Source: Agaribacillus aureus (GTDB lineage: Bacteria; Bacteroidota; Bacteroidia; Cytophagales; Cyclobacteriaceae). From it: a stretch of 64,000 nt of DNA. The first letter of the stretch is position 1. Every line of letters starts with the position of its first letter. The DNA lies in assembly GCA_030442055.1 (NCBI GenBank), contig JAUJEB010000001.1:2108001-2172000 (forward strand). The letters are read 5' to 3'. The position numbers and the translations under genes are program-made. Below the pieces are notes generated by a model, which was not told where the DNA came from, ran no database searches, and worked only from the letters and a program-made list of their open reading frames with translations. Positions 1-7,117 of the stretch are shown here, one piece after another.

Positions 1-593
1 ACATCCCCGGTCTTTACAATAAAGGGTTTTTGTTCATCCCTTGTCACCATAAAAAAGGCCTCTCCTTTCAATGTTACTTCCCGGGTATTTTGAAATTCCC
101 TTGGGTAAATCAAAACACTCTCCGAATTCATTTGCACTGTTGTGCCATCCGATAGTGTTAATGTAATTTTCTGACCTCGTGCTGTTTCCTTTGTAAGCAA
201 AGCGGCACTTACGGAATCAGATTGATTATCCAGATCCATTAAAAACCAGGCTAAAACCCCGGTTACCAGCACAATTACCGCCGCTTTTAGATATCCAGAC
301 ATGGGAGGTCTTTTCTTTTTTTCTGCGATAAGCCTGTTTTCATGTTCAAATATCATGCTTAAGAGTTTCGATACATTCAATTGAGAATCGATACTCTCAT
401 CACTTTCCGTCGTTCCGGAAAGCTCTTCCAATTCGGCAGGGCTTTTTAGTTTCCCTTCTTTCTCCCATCGTTCAATCAAAGTTCCTGCATCAGGCCTCCG
501 CAGGAAGTCTATGACCGCGTCGTACTCTTCATCTGTATAGGAATTATCCCAATACTTCTGAATTAGCTGAATGATGTCATTTTGTTTATCCAT
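1..593 (-). CDS. FecR-family anti-sigma factor (C-terminus beyond window)
   Basis: Reading leftward from an ATG at 593, the first 197 residues are visible and no stop occurs before the window edge. Residues 1-95 are a charged cytoplasmic part with the FecR-type N-terminal helical pattern (IQKYWDNSYTDEEYDAVIDF). One membrane segment spans about 101-119. A periplasmic FecR domain then begins around residue 135, with the typical stretch TARGQKITLTLSDGTTVQMN followed by GEAFFMVTRDE. FecR proteins hold an ECF sigma factor inactive and transmit a signal from a TonB-dependent outer-membrane transporter. The sigma gene lies upstream on the same strand but about 650 bases away, more than is usual for such pairs. 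A SusC/SusD-type transporter pair would be expected further left, outside this window. Confidence 0.9.
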   Translation of the reverse strand, partial: MDKQNDIIQLIQKYWDNSYTDEEYDAVIDFLRRPDAGTLIERWEKEGKLKSPAELEELSGTTESDESIDSQLNVSKLLSMIFEHENRLIAEKKKRPPMSGYLKAAVIVLVTGVLAWFLMDLDNQSDSVSAALLTKETARGQKITLTLSDGTTVQMNSESVLIYPREFQNTREVTLKGEAFFMVTRDEQKPFIVKTGD

Positions 594-1243: not shown

Positions 1244-1828
1244 TTAAAAAATAGTCAATAAAGCCAGTATGAGATATAAATGGCGTTCCACATGTTTTTT
1301 TATAATTAGCAAGGCTTCCCAAATGTGATTTTCCACCGTTTTGATAGTAATACCCAATTGCTTGGCTATCTCACCATTACTCTTTCCTTGCTGGCGGGAA
1401 AGCTGATAAATATTCCGTTTTCTTTCCGGCAAACGCTCGAGAATGCTGTCCATTAAATTATCGAGGTCCATGGAGATCACAAGATCATCGGCCTGGTCCC
1501 TGGCTCTCAAGGCGTCTTTCTTCAATACTTCCGCCAAGTCTTCATGTTGTACGGCATCTCTAATATAGTTTAGTGACCGATTTCGAACCATCCTATACAA
1601 ATAGGCCTTGATATTCCCATCCTTTCGAAGACTTTTACGGTGCAGCCAAAGCTTAAAAAAAACATCCTGTATGATTTCATCTGAGATAAACCTGGATTTG
1701 GTAAACTGAAAGGCATATTGGCCCAACTGCTTTTCATACATTTTGTAAATTCGCTCAAATGCGTCCAAATCATCCTCTTCAATGAACTTCCTAAAGAGCT
1801 GAATATTATCTGTCAATTTATCTATCAT
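1244..1828 (-). CDS. ECF-type RNA polymerase sigma factor (sigma-70 family)
   Basis: This 194-residue protein has the two-part layout of extracytoplasmic-function sigma factors. Region 2 lies at about residues 24-90 and includes a core-binding and -10 recognition stretch (ISDEIIQDVFFKLWLHRK). Region 4 lies at about 128-180 with a helix-turn-helix (NGEIAKQLGITIKTVENHI). The hydrophobic C-terminal tail (LYLILALLTIF) is common in Bacteroidota members of this family. It precedes the FecR gene on the same strand, so the two probably form a cell-surface signalling pair controlling an uptake system. The ATG at 1828 gives a full-length family member. The target genes are not in view. Confidence 0.92.
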   Translation of the reverse strand: MIDKLTDNIQLFRKFIEEDDLDAFERIYKMYEKQLGQYAFQFTKSRFISDEIIQDVFFKLWLHRKSLRKDGNIKAYLYRMVRNRSLNYIRDAVQHEDLAEVLKKDALRARDQADDLVISMDLDNLMDSILERLPERKRNIYQLSRQQGKSNGEIAKQLGITIKTVENHIWEALLIIKKHVERHLYLILALLTIF

Positions 1829-2061: not shown

Positions 2062-3414
2062 TTACAAATAATCATCATCCTTGAATTTTTTGTAGATATC
2101 TTTGTAACTCTTTTTTAATGAATCATTTATTAAAAGGGATTCCTGCAATCTCTCGGCGGTATAGGCCACCATTTTTCTTTCTTTCTTATAATTTTTTCGG
2201 AGGATTGACTGCTTCATAACAAACAGGATGGTTAATATTAAAAGCACTACCGTAGCTATACTTCCTATTCTATAAAGCGCTTGCTCCTTTTCCAGACTTG
2301 CTTGTTTTTTAAAATCATTCAACCTGGCAATACCCTGCACCTTCTGTTTGGCGAAAGATTCCTGTAATTGAATTTTCATTCTTCTTAAAGCCAGGTTTTG
2401 CTGATGATAAGCGGTCAGATAGTCGGTTAATTTGCTATTTGGTAACGAGGTTTTGGGCTGGTCAGCCACAAGTTCCGTCAGCAAAGCAAGCGTTTGCATG
2501 GCATCGTCATTTGCCTCATGAATATTTATAGATTTCAAGCCATTGTCAAGCAATGCCATCGCTTTTTCAACATGGCCTTCCCGTCTATATATTTTTGCCA
2601 GCAGGTGCAGTGTACTTAAGGTTAGTGTTGGTTTTTGCAAATCCTTTTTGATTTGTAGCGCCTTTTCGAGCCATTGCTTTGCTTCTGCTAATTTACCTTC
2701 TGACATATATGTTTCTCCAATATTATGGTAGGCTATGGCATACTTTCTTTCATTGGCATCTGCATATTCCAGTGATCTGCAATAGTGATTTCTGGCCTCT
2801 GAATAGTTTTTCTTTTCAAAATTGACCCAACCTAAAAGGTTATAAATGCTACTTGTAAGCAAGCTATACTCCGATGGATTAGTGATCAATGCCTTATTTA
2901 AAAAATGTAATGCAGTGTCTTGCTGCTGTTTTTTAAGAAAACTGCGCGCAATATGGTATAAGGCAATGCTTTGATTATTGGGTTTATTTGCCAATTCATA
3001 TAGTACACTTGCTTTTTTCAGGTATTGAACTGCCATATCATAATCATAGGCGTTGTAAAAGATCCTGCCGAGATCCAGGTAAGCCGAGGCTTGCTCTTCA
3101 AAATCATGTAGCTTCCCACTAATTTCCAGCAGGTCATAGAGCGTTGACACACTTTCCTCAATTTTGCCTTGTTTCCTGTATACTTTGGCGATAACCGATA
3201 TAGCCTTCAGCTGGTATTTTTCGGTGTAATGATCTTTTCCCTTTTCTCTTAACTTTTTAGCATAAACCAGCGCCGAATCATATGCCTCACTTTGATAGAG
3301 ATGCCAGACATACTGCCATAAGGAATCAGTCTGAACATTGGCCTTGCAGTTGCCGGAGAATAACAGAAAAAAAATCATCAAGTAATAAAAAACAGGTAAC
3401 GGTTTGATTTTCAT
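2062..3414 (-). CDS. TPR-repeat membrane protein without a recognisable output domain
   Basis: The 450-residue product starts with a signal peptide (hydrophobic residues about 8-24). Roughly 35-310 are helical TPR-type repeats (for example DLGRIFYNAYDYDMAVQYLKK and ALYHIARSFLKKQQQDTALHF, each quoted only in part as motifs). A predicted membrane helix at about 383-400 is followed by a short coiled-coil tail ending KKFKDDDYL. This is the sensor half of a common Bacteroidota architecture in which periplasmic TPRs are joined through one helix to a LuxR-type helix-turn-helix or a histidine kinase. Here the tail is only about 50 residues and no DNA-binding or kinase motif is seen. It may signal through a partner or be a shortened relic. 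Neighbours on the same strand are the ECF sigma factor gene (downstream) and a small lipoprotein (upstream). Confidence 0.75.
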   Translation of the reverse strand: MKIKPLPVFYYLMIFFLLFSGNCKANVQTDSLWQYVWHLYQSEAYDSALVYAKKLREKGKDHYTEKYQLKAISVIAKVYRKQGKIEESVSTLYDLLEISGKLHDFEEQASAYLDLGRIFYNAYDYDMAVQYLKKASVLYELANKPNNQSIALYHIARSFLKKQQQDTALHFLNKALITNPSEYSLLTSSIYNLLGWVNFEKKNYSEARNHYCRSLEYADANERKYAIAYHNIGETYMSEGKLAEAKQWLEKALQIKKDLQKPTLTLSTLHLLAKIYRREGHVEKAMALLDNGLKSINIHEANDDAMQTLALLTELVADQPKTSLPNSKLTDYLTAYHQQNLALRRMKIQLQESFAKQKVQGIARLNDFKKQASLEKEQALYRIGSIATVVLLILTILFVMKQSILRKNYKKERKMVAYTAERLQESLLINDSLKKSYKDIYKKFKDDDYL

Positions 3415-3530: not shown

Positions 3531-3689
3531 TTAACGTTCATTCTTATTTTCCTCTACATCTTCACTATCCGGCGCCGGCACTTCAGAAGCTTCAATTTGT
3601 AGTTCTACATCAGCGACAGGATCATTTTCACATGCCGCCAGTGCCAAAAATCCTATCAGGATCATTGACAGGTAAACTAAAGTTTTCAT
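3531..3689 (-). CDS. Small lipoprotein (52 residues)
   Basis: An ATG at 3689 opens a 52-codon frame ending in TAA at 3531. The product begins MKTLVYLSMILIGFLALAAC, a lipoprotein signal peptide with lipobox L-A-A-C, so the mature protein would be anchored at Cys20. The mature part is only 33 residues and strongly acidic (ENDPVADVELQIEASEVP and further Asp/Glu). A hairpin terminator follows the stop within about 40 bases, which supports a real short transcript. I do not recognise a family. It is upstream of the TPR membrane protein on the same strand, but the terminator suggests separate transcription. Confidence 0.7.
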   Translation of the reverse strand: MKTLVYLSMILIGFLALAACENDPVADVELQIEASEVPAPDSEDVEENKNER

Positions 3690-4323
3690 GGTCATAAATT
3701 TTACAGTTAATTAATAATTAAAAAAGCTTAAGAACATCCCATGGTTGGGTTTCTCAGCTAATTGTTTCCCTAAATGGTAGCACACAATATTTTGGATATA
3801 TTATGTACAACCCACAGTCGCTGACCATATGAAAGCATAAATACGGCGTAAGTATTTGATGAGTCAACAATAGATTGGAATAATCGATTGCAATTACACT
3901 ATCCGGTAGCTGGTTTACTTAGTTGAATTTACATCTTTCCTTGTGAAATTCACAAGCTTAATTTCATTTCACTTATATGGCTAGTCAACGCAGGAGAAAT
4001 GTAATTATTTTTTCTCTAATAACCTAGTCACTAATGTTAAGGTATGATTTAATCTTTCGATTGGGCTCACAGGCTAGATAAAGATTGTTGAAGTATCTTT
4101 AGTTGACAATTGTATAATGGATAGAAGTTAGTTTCCACAAACCATACTTTATCGCCAAAGGAAATCATTGGAGAAAATTAAAAAAACTGATCTCATTTAC
4201 AAATTCTTTCGTTATTTTTATAATATTCATATCGAGGGCACAAAGCCAGCTATTTTATAGTGCGTATTACCTTATACGATTTTTTGGCGTTCAACTAGTT
4301 TCTCACCCATAGAAAAAAAATCA
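3690..4323. other. 634-base AT-rich intergenic region upstream of LanKC
   Basis: I read both strands for small genes, especially a lanthipeptide precursor. The plus-strand ATG frames I followed are at most about 16 codons and none has a leader/core pattern. The notable structure is a 17-base palindrome at 3940-3956, listed separately. The two flanking genes diverge, so promoters for both should lie here, but I cannot place a clean TAnnTTTG box. Confidence 0.5.
3940..3956. promoter_or_regulatory. Perfect 17-base palindrome, candidate operator
   Basis: CTTGTGAA-A-TTCACAAG is fully self-complementary around one central base. It sits 368 bases upstream of the LanKC start and 250 bases upstream of the divergent lipoprotein gene. 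The size and symmetry fit a binding site for a dimeric regulator. No T-tract follows, so it is not a terminator. Which protein would bind is unknown. Confidence 0.35.
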
Positions 4324-6957
4324 ATGCACTCGAAATTAACGCAACCAATTGCGATTAAAAAAGCCATTTCAGCGAATTATGCTAAAATTCTTAAGAAACA
4401 CCATCTTAAATATCAAGCGGTTGATCACTATTACCAGGTAGGTCACCCTGAAAAAGTACAAGGCTGGATCTTGCACCTTTCTCCTGTATGGACTGAAATC
4501 CCTGACTTATTAACAATCGTTTTACCTTTATTTACCACTCATAATGTTCCTTTTAAAATTGTGCAGGACAAAGGCGTGGCCAGCACACTTAATCAGGGTG
4601 GCCTTGGCTATCATCAGCTCGGGAAAGTTTTTTGTATATATCCCCCAAGCGACGAAATCGCCATGATGCTGGCGAGGGAACTGCTGGTACGCACGAAAGA
4701 CTTTAAAGGGTGTACTATTCCTACCGACTTTCATCTGGGTGGGATCCTTTACGCCAGGTATGGAAGTTTTAATCCAAAAATATACCAGGATAAAACAGGA
4801 CGCCCCGAAAGATACATTTATGACGCAAATGGCCAGTTGATCAAAGATGAATACAATATCCCATTCAAATTTCCAAAAGGTGTCCATTGGCCCTTTAAAG
4901 AATTAGCTGCTCCTGAAGAAGAAGTATTATCCACTTTTCTCAACAACCGCTACAAGGTGTTTTCAACACTTAAGACCGATGCTAAAGGGCGGGTGATGAA
5001 AGCTCTGCGACTCGATGGATTCCATATTCAATGGATCATTATTAAAGAGGCCAAACAGGGCATATGTATAGATGAGGAAGGACGTGATATTCAAGACCGG
5101 CTAAACTGGCAGCATATTCTGCAAAACGATTTACAACACAAAATGGCCATACCCCAAGTCTATGATTTTTTTAAAGAGAATGGCAACTCTTATCTTGCCA
5201 TGGAATACATCAAAGGAAAACACCTGGGCGGGGTGATTGACGATATTTTTGCATTGTCCTGTTGGAACGACCTGGACACCGATAAAAAGTCAACGCTATT
5301 GGATCACCTTATGCAACTGGTTGATACGATCAACGTACTACATCAGGAGGGATATATGCACCGGGATCTAAACTGGATGAACTTTATTCTCGATAAGCAG
5401 CACCAACTGGTTGCCATAGACCTTGAATTGGCCTACTCCATCAAACGCAACTTTCCTCACCCACCATTCAGGTTAGGCACCCCGGGATTGATGTCCCCCG
5501 AACAAGTTGCCACAAAAGAACCGCAGATAAACCAGGATATATACAGCTTGGGAGCTTTAATGATCAAATTCTTCACCAACCTGGCTCCTATGAAATTTGA
5601 GCGGGGCCATCCCGGGTTAGTGGAAAATCTAAATTTCTTTACAGGCACCAAAAGATTATCAGATCTGATAGCAGCCTGTGTAAGTTCGAAACCCGCGGAC
5701 CGGCCTGATATTAATAACATAAAATCCACACTGGAAAATTTTAGAGCAACATTAGCTACCTCTGAGCAGTCGCGACCAGCAAACAACAAGTCTATTGATC
5801 AAACTATGCAGTTTCTTATCCATGCTTTAGGAAACATCGTCATGATTCGCCCCAATCATGTCTGGCATTCCAACACCGCACGGGACCAGGATCTGTTGGA
5901 CAACCATCAGGCCGGACTCTCCTATGATTTTGGGTTGTACACCGGGGTAAGTGGTGTTATGTACACATTAGCAAATGTTAAATGCGCAGGGCATGATATT
6001 GGAGATGCCGAGGAAGCCTATTCAAGAGCCTGGCAATACCTCAGTACCGAATTCCTTAATAACTTGCCCAATTCTATACCGGGTTTGTATTATGGTGCAG
6101 CTGGTGTAGCGATGGGCATCGCTAAAGGTATAGAGGCCAAATTAATAGATCCGGAACACCAATCAAACCTAAAGAAATGCCTGGAAATTCAAGCAACCGA
6201 ATTAGATGTAGCATATGGGGTCGCCGGTCAGGGGTTAGCTGTTTTGCATTGTCTAAACCTATTGGGCACAGAAACTGCTAAACACCTTTTGGACCATTAC
6301 GTAAACACATTACTCGAAAATCAGCAAAAGGACGGATCCTGGTTAGCCCTGGAGCCGGATAGCAGTCGAACCCTAAAGTACACTGGTTTTTCTCAGGGTG
6401 TAACCGGGATCTGTTTTTTTCTGCTGAAATATTATGAGCATTATAAAGATGAGCAGGTGCAAGCAGCCGCCACAAAAGCTCTTCGATGGTTACAAAAAAA
6501 GTCCAGAAAAAGTAAAGAGGGGACATTTTGGCTGATCCACAATCGCAAAAGAGTTTTTGATCGCTGGTTGAATGACGGCACTGCGGGTATTGCATTATGT
6601 TTTATAACCGCTTATAAAGTTTTGGGTGATCCAAACTACAAAAAAATTGCAGAAAACACGCTGGCCATCAATCCCCGTCACCTTGTCTATCACAACTTTT
6701 CCCTGGCCAGTGGCATGGCCGGTCTGGCAGAAGTTTATCTCACCGCGGCACGGGTTTTTGAAGATGATGAATGGCAGGCCAGGGCAGATTTTATTTTAGA
6801 TGTATTGATGCACGCTTACCGCACCAATGAAGATAATTCTTATTACTGGATCGTCGACGATAACAAAATACCTACCGCTGACCTGATGGTTGGTAACAGT
6901 GGCATACTTCATTTTTTCTTGAGATATCTTTCGCCAGAAACATCTTCATTTTTATGA
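4324..6957 (+). CDS. Class III-like lanthionine synthetase (LanKC)
   Basis: The 877-residue protein has the three LanKC regions. Residues 1-200 match the N-terminal lyase-type region (QGWILHLSP at 46-54, QLGKVFCIYPPSDE at 98-111, YARYGSF at 143-149). A Ser/Thr-kinase-like domain spans about 210-490, with catalytic loop HRDLNWMNF (346-354), DFG-equivalent IDLELA (365-370) and GTPGLMSPEQ (385-394). A LanC-like helical domain spans about 515-877. Known LanKC enzymes phosphorylate Ser/Thr in a precursor peptide, eliminate phosphate and cyclise with Cys. In the LanC part the usual zinc-ligand sites read WLNDGTAGI (near 746) and LASGMAGL (near 795). The Cys and Cys-His ligands are therefore absent, as in class III rather than class IV enzymes. 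No precursor, transporter or protease gene is adjacent. Its natural substrate is unknown. Confidence 0.85.
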   Translation: MHSKLTQPIAIKKAISANYAKILKKHHLKYQAVDHYYQVGHPEKVQGWILHLSPVWTEIPDLLTIVLPLFTTHNVPFKIVQDKGVASTLNQGGLGYHQLGKVFCIYPPSDEIAMMLARELLVRTKDFKGCTIPTDFHLGGILYARYGSFNPKIYQDKTGRPERYIYDANGQLIKDEYNIPFKFPKGVHWPFKELAAPEEEVLSTFLNNRYKVFSTLKTDAKGRVMKALRLDGFHIQWIIIKEAKQGICIDEEGRDIQDRLNWQHILQNDLQHKMAIPQVYDFFKENGNSYLAMEYIKGKHLGGVIDDIFALSCWNDLDTDKKSTLLDHLMQLVDTINVLHQEGYMHRDLNWMNFILDKQHQLVAIDLELAYSIKRNFPHPPFRLGTPGLMSPEQVATKEPQINQDIYSLGALMIKFFTNLAPMKFERGHPGLVENLNFFTGTKRLSDLIAACVSSKPADRPDINNIKSTLENFRATLATSEQSRPANNKSIDQTMQFLIHALGNIVMIRPNHVWHSNTARDQDLLDNHQAGLSYDFGLYTGVSGVMYTLANVKCAGHDIGDAEEAYSRAWQYLSTEFLNNLPNSIPGLYYGAAGVAMGIAKGIEAKLIDPEHQSNLKKCLEIQATELDVAYGVAGQGLAVLHCLNLLGTETAKHLLDHYVNTLLENQQKDGSWLALEPDSSRTLKYTGFSQGVTGICFFLLKYYEHYKDEQVQAAATKALRWLQKKSRKSKEGTFWLIHNRKRVFDRWLNDGTAGIALCFITAYKVLGDPNYKKIAENTLAINPRHLVYHNFSLASGMAGLAEVYLTAARVFEDDEWQARADFILDVLMHAYRTNEDNSYYWIVDDNKIPTADLMVGNSGILHFFLRYLSPETSSFL

Positions 6958-7037: not shown

Positions 7038-7046
7038 CTTATTCTG

Positions 7047-7117
7047 AGGTCGCGAGCGGATTCGAACCGCTGTACGAGCTTTTGCAGAGCTCTGCCTAGC
7101 CACTCGGCCACACGACC
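7047..7117 (-). tRNA. tRNA-Cys (anticodon GCA)
   Basis: The minus strand reads GGTCGTG at the 5' end and CGCGACC-T at the 3' end, giving a 7-bp acceptor stem with U73, the discriminator base expected for tRNA-Cys. The anticodon stem GAGCT/AGCTC encloses the loop CTGCAAA, so the anticodon is GCA. The T arm is GCGGTTCGAATCCGC with the invariant TTCGA. The length is 71 bases and the CCA end is not encoded. Confidence 0.97.

What the first reader, a model, noticed from the sequence alone, without database searches (positions are those of the whole stretch)
4324..6957. Orphan class III-like LanKC in a Bacteroidota genome with the zinc site lost
All three LanKC regions are recognisable, with intact kinase motifs (HRDLN, IDLELA, GTPG). 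The cyclase region has N and A-S where Cys and Cys-His zinc ligands are expected. Class III LanKC enzymes from Actinobacteria lack the zinc site and make lanthionine or labionin rings. Here no precursor, transporter or protease is seen within several kb, so the substrate may be encoded elsewhere, be very short, or not be a classical lanthipeptide. This is the strongest candidate for an undescribed system in the window.
Basis: partly seen in the sequence, partly recalled or inferred. Interest (0 to 1): 0.7.

Follow-up and report, generated by a model that had tools for sequence, protein, structure and literature searches.

The report
Lanthipeptide enzyme repurposed as peptide kinase
A Bacteroidota bacterium carries a three-part enzyme descended from makers of ring-shaped peptides, in which the kinase looks intact while the other two catalytic sites have lost key residues; many of its relatives sit beside genes for small exported proteins, so it may have become a kinase for such proteins.

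Summary
ORF 4324-6957(+) is a RamC_N + kinase + LANC_like protein, its model superposes on CuvL and ThurKC, and the zinc triad is absent.

Two things change the reading. (1) The lyase-like domain is altered too: ThurKC's Lys65 is Ile49 and no Arg stands at the Arg191 position. K65 is lost in 16 of 16 Bacteroidota rows with the domain (query included) and kept in 5 of 5 controls; kinase residues are kept in 18 of 18 rows. Relatives lacking the cyclase, the lyase, or both exist. (2) It is not a plain orphan. In 16 of 23 Bacteroidota kinase genes examined MauE is the neighbour, often with small exported DUF6520-like proteins and SusCD. Here such a cassette lies 14.7-17.5 kb upstream, in an island whose synteny with a sister genome stops at this gene. 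Ordinary-looking class III genes in the same family differ.

Best reading: a LanKC-derived kinase for small exported proteins. Substrate and activity are inferred; all three domains are about equally conserved against the sister copy, so an altered synthetase is not excluded.

The parts
4324..6957 (+). LanKC/LanL-derived trimodular protein, 877 aa
4432..4908 (+). RamC_N lyase-like domain (residues 37-195); K65 equivalent is I49, R191 equivalent is Y177, K108 position is G92; H51, K78, K101, D135, R145 kept
   Evidence: residue roles from passages of PMC10604976
4936..5757 (+). protein kinase domain (about residues 205-478), catalytic residues intact
5923..6951 (+). LANC_like cyclase-like domain (residues 534-876) without zinc triad (N750, A795, S796)
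3531..3695 (-). 54-aa lipoprotein-like ORF with an APDSEDVEEN tail shared with the sister genome (dN 0.33, dS 1.59); second-choice substrate candidate
2062..3414 (-). TPR protein of the conserved island (54% identical in sister genome, collinear)
1244..1828 (-). ECF-type sigma factor of the conserved island (81% identical in sister genome)
1..71 (-). FecR-type anti-sigma factor of the island (rest lies outside the window)
7046..7117 (-). tRNA-Cys directly beyond the end of the island; no att-like repeat found

Best explanation
The gene encodes a LanKC/LanL descendant that has become mainly a kinase. Shown by sequence: intact kinase catalytic residues; loss of lyase residues that ThurKC needs; loss of the cyclase zinc triad; relatives without cyclase, without lyase, or without both; kinase genes next to MauE and small exported proteins. 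Inferred: the protein binds the conserved N-terminal (signal-peptide) region of small DUF6520-like proteins in the cytosol, using the lyase-like and cyclase-like domains as docking surfaces, and phosphorylates Ser/Thr of the mature part before Sec export; MauE then helps form their disulfides in the periplasm, and they act with the SusCD/FecR/ECF-sigma outer-membrane system. In this genome the substrates would be the two DUF6520-like proteins of the same island (contig C1:2094859-2095119 and 2097402-2097659), possibly also those of paralogous cassettes, or the 54-aa lipoprotein at 3531-3695.
For: Kinase residues kept in 18 of 18 rows; K65 lost in 16 of 16 and no Arg at the R191 position in 16 of 16 rows with the domain; in ThurKC K65A gives no turnover and R191A phosphorylated intermediates (PMC10604976). 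Zinc triad 0 of 12. MauE-adjacent forms without cyclase (L086-L091), without lyase (L082a) and kinase-only (L023, L098, and the split L093 gene). MauE is the neighbour in 16 of 23 Bacteroidota kinase genes examined, against about one MauE hit per Mb (9 in 9.39 Mb). The synteny island ends at this gene. DUF6520 hits in 4 of 5 genomes with a kinase of this clade against 38 of 196 overall, P = 0.005, post hoc. N-termini of 23 small proteins resemble each other far more than those of 16 control proteins trimmed the same way (mean Z 3.35 against 0.50; mature parts 1.35). One of the two small ORFs beside the Puia LanKC-like gene has no Cys past residue 22, the other one, so thioether rings cannot form in the first.
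Against: No activity or substrate is shown. Most DUF6520-positive genomes of the family lack the kinase (34 of 38), so phosphorylation is not essential to such cassettes. The leader-like N-terminus is conserved in kinase-less cassettes too, so something else may recognise it. Seven of the 23 kinase genes, the query among them, do not adjoin MauE. Lyase-like, kinase and cyclase-like regions are 63, 62 and 66% identical to the sister's, and the query keeps H67, K94, K117, D152 and R163 equivalents, so these domains are not simply dead. CuvL also lacks an Arg at the R191 position and a Lys at the K108 position, so those two losses alone prove little. The sister copy has an in-frame TAG near its start.
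Confidence: 0.43

Rival explanations
1. Altered but working class III/IV synthetase: the lyase works without K65 and R191, and the enzyme installs dehydroamino acids or thioether rings in small exported Cys-containing proteins.
For: Five of the eight compared lyase residues are kept in the query; all three domains are about equally conserved against the sister; small ORFs found near the kinase genes are on average 21% Ser/Thr past residue 22, and 28 of 32 have 2 or more Cys there (a crude list); zinc-free cyclases are normal in class III (PMC10604976).
Against: K65 lost in 16 of 16 rows, with 5 of 5 controls keeping it; by motif alignment the ThurKC Phe/Asp pair is Ala/Ser here; cyclase or lyase is absent from MauE-adjacent relatives; MauE adjacency suggests disulfides (inferred), which would compete for the same Cys.
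Confidence: 0.27
2. A signalling Ser/Thr kinase that controls the island (sigma factor, FecR, TPR protein or LuxR-type regulator) rather than modifying an exported product.
For: Intact kinase; the island holds a sigma factor, FecR, TPR and LuxR-type HTH genes (HTH by eye); kinase-only versions exist.
Against: In L023, L086-L091, L093 and L098 what recurs beside the kinase is MauE and, in most, a small exported protein, while the upstream regulators differ.
Confidence: 0.2
3. A decaying relic of a class III or IV cluster.
For: The sister copy has a TAG at about residue 30; lyase and cyclase have lost catalytic residues.
Against: Intact 877-aa ORF; changes against the sister concentrate at third codon positions (241/146/460 at positions 1/2/3 over 806 codons); the family occurs in several genera with invariant kinase residues.
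Confidence: 0.05

Closest known systems
Class IV-type lanthionine synthetase CuvL (PDB 8car/8cav; LanL model NF038150)
   Same: Same three-domain order and fold; best NCBIfam model is LanL and best Foldseek hit CuvL (TM 0.77, 22% identity). That CuvL is class IV is recalled
   Different: Query has N and A-S where CuvL's aligned sequence has Cys and Cys-Cys; no K65; below the NCBIfam cut-off; no Ser/Cys-motif ORF beside the gene
Class III LanKC (ThurKC, PDB 8sam, 8sao, 8sap)
   Same: Same domains, no zinc triad
   Different: Lacks ThurKC K65 and R191 equivalents and, by motif alignment, Phe770/Asp771; no class III-type precursor; MauE/DUF6520 setting in relatives
Bufferin/MNIO clusters (PMC12452194, passages)
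   Same: Works like: small Cys-containing precursors with Sec signal peptides and a modifying enzyme, with DoxX and sigma-factor genes found in such clusters
   Different: Modifier here is a LanKC-type kinase, not an MNIO; precursor families not compared
Chryseobasin-type DAG-RiPPs of Bacteroidota (PMC12636315, passages)
   Same: Exported or lipoprotein precursors, clusters often with SusC/SusD; a prolyl oligopeptidase in one cluster
   Different: MNIO chemistry
Class V lanthipeptide systems (PMC9486802, search listing only; separate kinase and lyase is recalled)
   Same: Stand-alone kinase
   Different: No separate lyase was noticed beside the kinase-only genes, but none was searched for

Membership tests
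Class III LanKC | Lyase-kinase-cyclase order and fold | tested here: met
Class III LanKC | Score above the NCBIfam equivalog cut-off (575) | tested here: not met
   292 bits
Class III LanKC | No zinc triad in the cyclase | tested here: met
   0 of 12 rows
Class III LanKC | Lyase residues important in ThurKC (K65, R163, R191 among them) | tested here: not met
   R163 equivalent kept; K65 and R191 equivalents lost
Class III LanKC | Precursor peptide with Ser/Cys motif beside the gene | tested here: not met
   contrast L019 and L020
Class III LanKC | Makes Lan, MeLan or labionin | not testable with these tools
   needs chemistry
Class IV LanL | Score above the NCBIfam equivalog cut-off (650) | tested here: not met
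   378 bits
Class IV LanL | Zinc triad in the cyclase | tested here: not met
   the L092a and L092b controls carry Cys and Cys-His there
MauE/DUF6520-associated kinase clade (defined here) | Groups with MauE-adjacent kinases apart from control synthetases | tested here: met
   20-row group 91/98, 12-row group with query 98/99; midpoint root, one row misplaced
MauE/DUF6520-associated kinase clade (defined here) | MauE as neighbour gene | tested here: not met
   MauE of the island is about 16 kb upstream

The most novel reading that the evidence does not exclude
A Bacteroidota pathway in which a LanKC-derived enzyme, stripped of dehydration and ring chemistry, phosphorylates Sec-exported, disulfide-bonded small proteins whose signal peptide doubles as leader, producing exported phospho-peptides that are taken up or sensed through a SusCD/FecR/sigma system: a RiPP-like class whose final mark is phosphate.
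Probability: 0.2. Interest if true: 0.85.

Novelty: new variant of a known kind. Interest (0 to 1): 0.58.

Why it matters
If true, it would show how a natural-product synthetase can be pared down to its kinase (trimodular, bimodular and kinase-only forms persist side by side), would give DUF6520/MauE islands, whose function is unknown, a first candidate modifying enzyme, and would warn against naming such genes lanthipeptide synthetases from domain content alone.

Tried and rejected
The single-protein scan of genome contigs gave nothing; the alignment scan, which rests on two short peptide patterns and so is not exhaustive, gave 29 loci. Classical precursor search near the gene: nothing convincing. 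Defence kinase (PADLOC): the listed hits to the query start at residue 203 or later and end by 496, judged generic kinase hits. tRNA-linked mobile island: tRNA-Cys abuts the gene, but no repeat of its end at the far boundary; integrases were not searched for beyond reading ORFs. Metallophosphatase as conserved partner: in the query island, no match on the sister contig. Rows dropped or not examined: the ten loci outside Bacteroidota (L092, L094-L097, L099-L103) were left out of the kinase count; none has a MauE hit. Of two further relatives, L106 has no MauE within its 1.5-kb flanks and is counted as a miss; L107 ends at the contig edge and was left out. Of the 11 genomes with matches, five carry this clade; G010 and G141 served as controls; G013, G050, G072 and G119 were not studied beyond profile hits. 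L086 and L091 look near-identical, so the 16 are not fully independent. The tree has a misplaced long branch (L082_Niastella_KC, probably my crude cut-out) and a partial L093 row. The small-protein finder is crude: it includes doubtful hits (for instance L081 30 aa, an antisense ORF in L078) and misses L098. My first N-terminus control was not trimmed like the small proteins; repeated with trimming, the contrast stayed. Family matches of the 54-aa ORF are weak. Library searches: DUF6520 none, NVEALA none, LanKC with Bacteroidota none, LanKC with class III lanthipeptide and Bacteroidetes four (passages of PMC7268733 read), class III lanthipeptide with Chitinophaga two (listing only). Confidence of the main reading lowered from 0.45 to 0.43 after adding L106 and the CuvL comparison.

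Full report
What is there. The ORF 4324-6957(+) encodes 877 aa with RamC_N, kinase and LANC_like domains. AlphaFold2 with a 12-row alignment gives mean pLDDT 82.9; Foldseek ranks CuvL, the curvocidin synthetase, first (8cav, TM 0.77, 22% identity), then ThurKC, SalKC and PneKC. NCBIfam prefers class IV LanL (378 bits) to class III (292), both under cut-off. A protein search found no other copy in the 9.39-Mb genome; one other LANC_like hit (28.9 bits, over Pfam's cut-off) lies on contig C23 and was not studied.

Catalytic sites. Residue roles come from passages of the ThurKC paper PMC10604976. Kinase Lys, HRD, Asn and Asp are kept in 18 of 18 aligned rows. In the lyase-like domain the query keeps H67, K94, K117, D152 and R163 equivalents but has Ile49 for K65, Tyr177 for R191 and Gly92 at the K108 position, mapped by the alignment. 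(The column printed as R191 is one residue off; the right one was read from the printed windows, and it is uncertain in the short forms.) K65 is absent from 16 of 16 rows that have the domain, and the sister reads Val there; 5 of 5 control synthetases (L019, L020, L092a, L092b, L094) keep it, as do CuvL, ThurKC and 9wj0. PneKC and SalKC alignments were not printed and not examined. No Arg stands at the R191 position in the 16 rows; 5 of 5 controls have one; CuvL has none there and no Lys at K108. The zinc triad is missing in 12 of 12 aligned rows with a cyclase, two of them gapped at the first site. By motif alignment ThurKC's Phe770-Asp771 correspond to A795-S796 here (inferred).

Family. The alignment scan of genome contigs returned 29 loci: 19 in Bacteroidota (Chitinophaga, Puia, Niastella, Mucilaginibacter, Pedobacter, Dawidia, Parachryseolinea, a Chitinophagales MAG, and a Cytophagales MAG that is the window's sister) and ten elsewhere. 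Architectures: trimodular; RamC_N plus kinase (L082b, L086-L091); kinase plus cyclase (L082a); kinase alone (L023, L098, and L093, split over two ORFs). In a tree of kinase domains 20 Bacteroidota rows group apart from the five controls (91/98), and the trimodular ones, with the kinase-only L023, group at 98/99. Rooting is by midpoint and long branches are flagged, so the order of domain loss is not proven.

Neighbourhood in relatives. I examined 23 Bacteroidota kinase genes: 20 (19 loci, two genes in L082), L023 of G162, L106, and the query. MauE is the neighbour in 16: L023, L076, L077, L078, L081, L082a (with a small HTH-like ORF between), L083, L084, L086-L091, L093, L098. It is not in L075, L079, L080, L082b, L085, L106 and the query. 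Small exported-looking proteins of about 70-145 aa accompany many of them: a home-made profile finds them in L076-L078, L083, L084, L090 and, 7 kb off, L080; reading the tables adds L023, L079, L085-L088, L091, L093 and L098. Pfam calls the clearer ones DUF6520, function unknown; several are below its cut-off or unmatched. Further members in some loci are a membrane-anchored beta-propeller (Foldseek includes a DUF4221 structure), TlpA-like thioredoxins, M16, S8 or S9 peptidases, and SusD/SusC (confirmed by Pfam in the query island; elsewhere by eye).

Neighbourhood of the query. In this genome the cassette DUF6520-MauE-propeller-DUF6520 lies at C1:2094859-2097659; the window starts at C1:2108001. 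Comparison with sister contig G009:C4 shows one collinear block of 12 genes: LuxR-type HTH, MauE, propeller, DUF6520, ABC permease, ABC ATPase, SusD, SusC, FecR, sigma factor, TPR, LanKC-like gene. One DUF6520 copy and a metallophosphatase are extra in the query genome. Outside the block only four weak or non-collinear matches turned up, in the stretch compared (C1:2084001 to window 30000 against the 61.8-kb sister contig). A tRNA-Cys follows the gene. Between the TPR gene and the LanKC-like gene lies a 54-aa lipoprotein-like ORF, 3531-3695(-), with the tail APDSEDVEEN shared with the sister (dN 0.33, dS 1.59); weaker relatives of it lie on contigs G000:C7, G009:C112 and G009:C205, which also carry MauE genes.

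Contrast. Two class III-type enzymes in the same family, L019 (G010) and L020 (G141), keep K65 and R191, have no MauE hit in their stretches, and have 42-aa and 61-aa ORFs with SxxSxxC motifs directly upstream (the ORFs were picked by eye). So class III-like genes are recognisable in this family, and the query is of another sort.

Mechanism. The simplest reading is a kinase that kept the LanKC scaffold for substrate docking. The 23 small proteins compared share a conserved N-terminus beyond what 16 control proteins from the same stretches show (mean Z 3.35 against 0.50; mature parts 1.35), as expected if it doubles as a leader, though common descent alone could add to it. MNIO-modified bufferins are a precedent for RiPP precursors with Sec signal peptides, with doxX genes in many clusters (PMC12452194, passages), and Bacteroidota MNIO peptides for SusCD linkage (PMC12636315, passages). 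Against it: DUF6520 proteins occur in 38 of 196 family genomes, only 4 of which carry this kinase, so the kinase is an optional extra. The lyase-like region (residues 71-204 only, since the sister ORF starts there) and the cyclase-like region are 63% and 66% identical to the sister's, the kinase 62%, with changes mostly at third positions, so these domains still do something.

Novelty. No paper in the held library mentions DUF6520, NVEALA or LanKC together with Bacteroidota; four hold LanKC, class III lanthipeptide and Bacteroidetes, of which PMC7268733 (passages) says that most LanKC and LanL are from Actinobacteria and Firmicutes. The library lacks most subscription journals, so this is not proof that nothing is in print. 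I file it as a new variant: LanKC/LanL-derived, but outside class III and class IV by features tested here.

Noticed in passing
L019:8728-11629(-) and L020:3272-6412(-): Class III-type LanKC genes with short Ser/Cys-containing ORFs (42 and 61 aa) directly upstream, in the window's own taxonomic family.
   Followed up: partly
window 3531-3695 (-): 54-aa lipoprotein-like ORF with conserved acidic APDSEDVEEN tail; weak relatives on contigs that also carry MauE genes.
   Followed up: partly
L060, L061, L062 (G000:C7 about 100-129 kb; C1 about 1943-1945 kb): Three further DUF6520-like/propeller cassettes, two of them with MauE, in the window's genome, with no kinase noticed beside them.
   Followed up: partly
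L002, G009:C4 about 19551: Sister copy of the LanKC-like gene has one in-frame TAG near its start; real break or assembly error not decided.
   Followed up: no
window 7046-7117 (-): tRNA-Cys, the only tRNA found in the window, directly beyond the LanKC-like gene where synteny with the sister stops.
   Followed up: yes
L086:8944-9120 (-): 58-aa ORF with a GG-type leader-like start and glycine-rich tail, bacteriocin-like by eye, upstream of the Mucilaginibacter kinase.
   Followed up: no
L108:888-5447 (-): 1519-aa ORF beginning MKTILGLDLGTNSIGWAL, Cas9-like by eye, on the sister contig.
   Followed up: no
L017:13959-16817(-), L079:12740-14290(-), L080:2733-5309(+), L085:6374-9094(+): M16, S8 and S9 peptidases near kinase genes, families known from lanthipeptide leader removal (M16 from PMC10604976, the others partly recalled).
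   Followed up: partly
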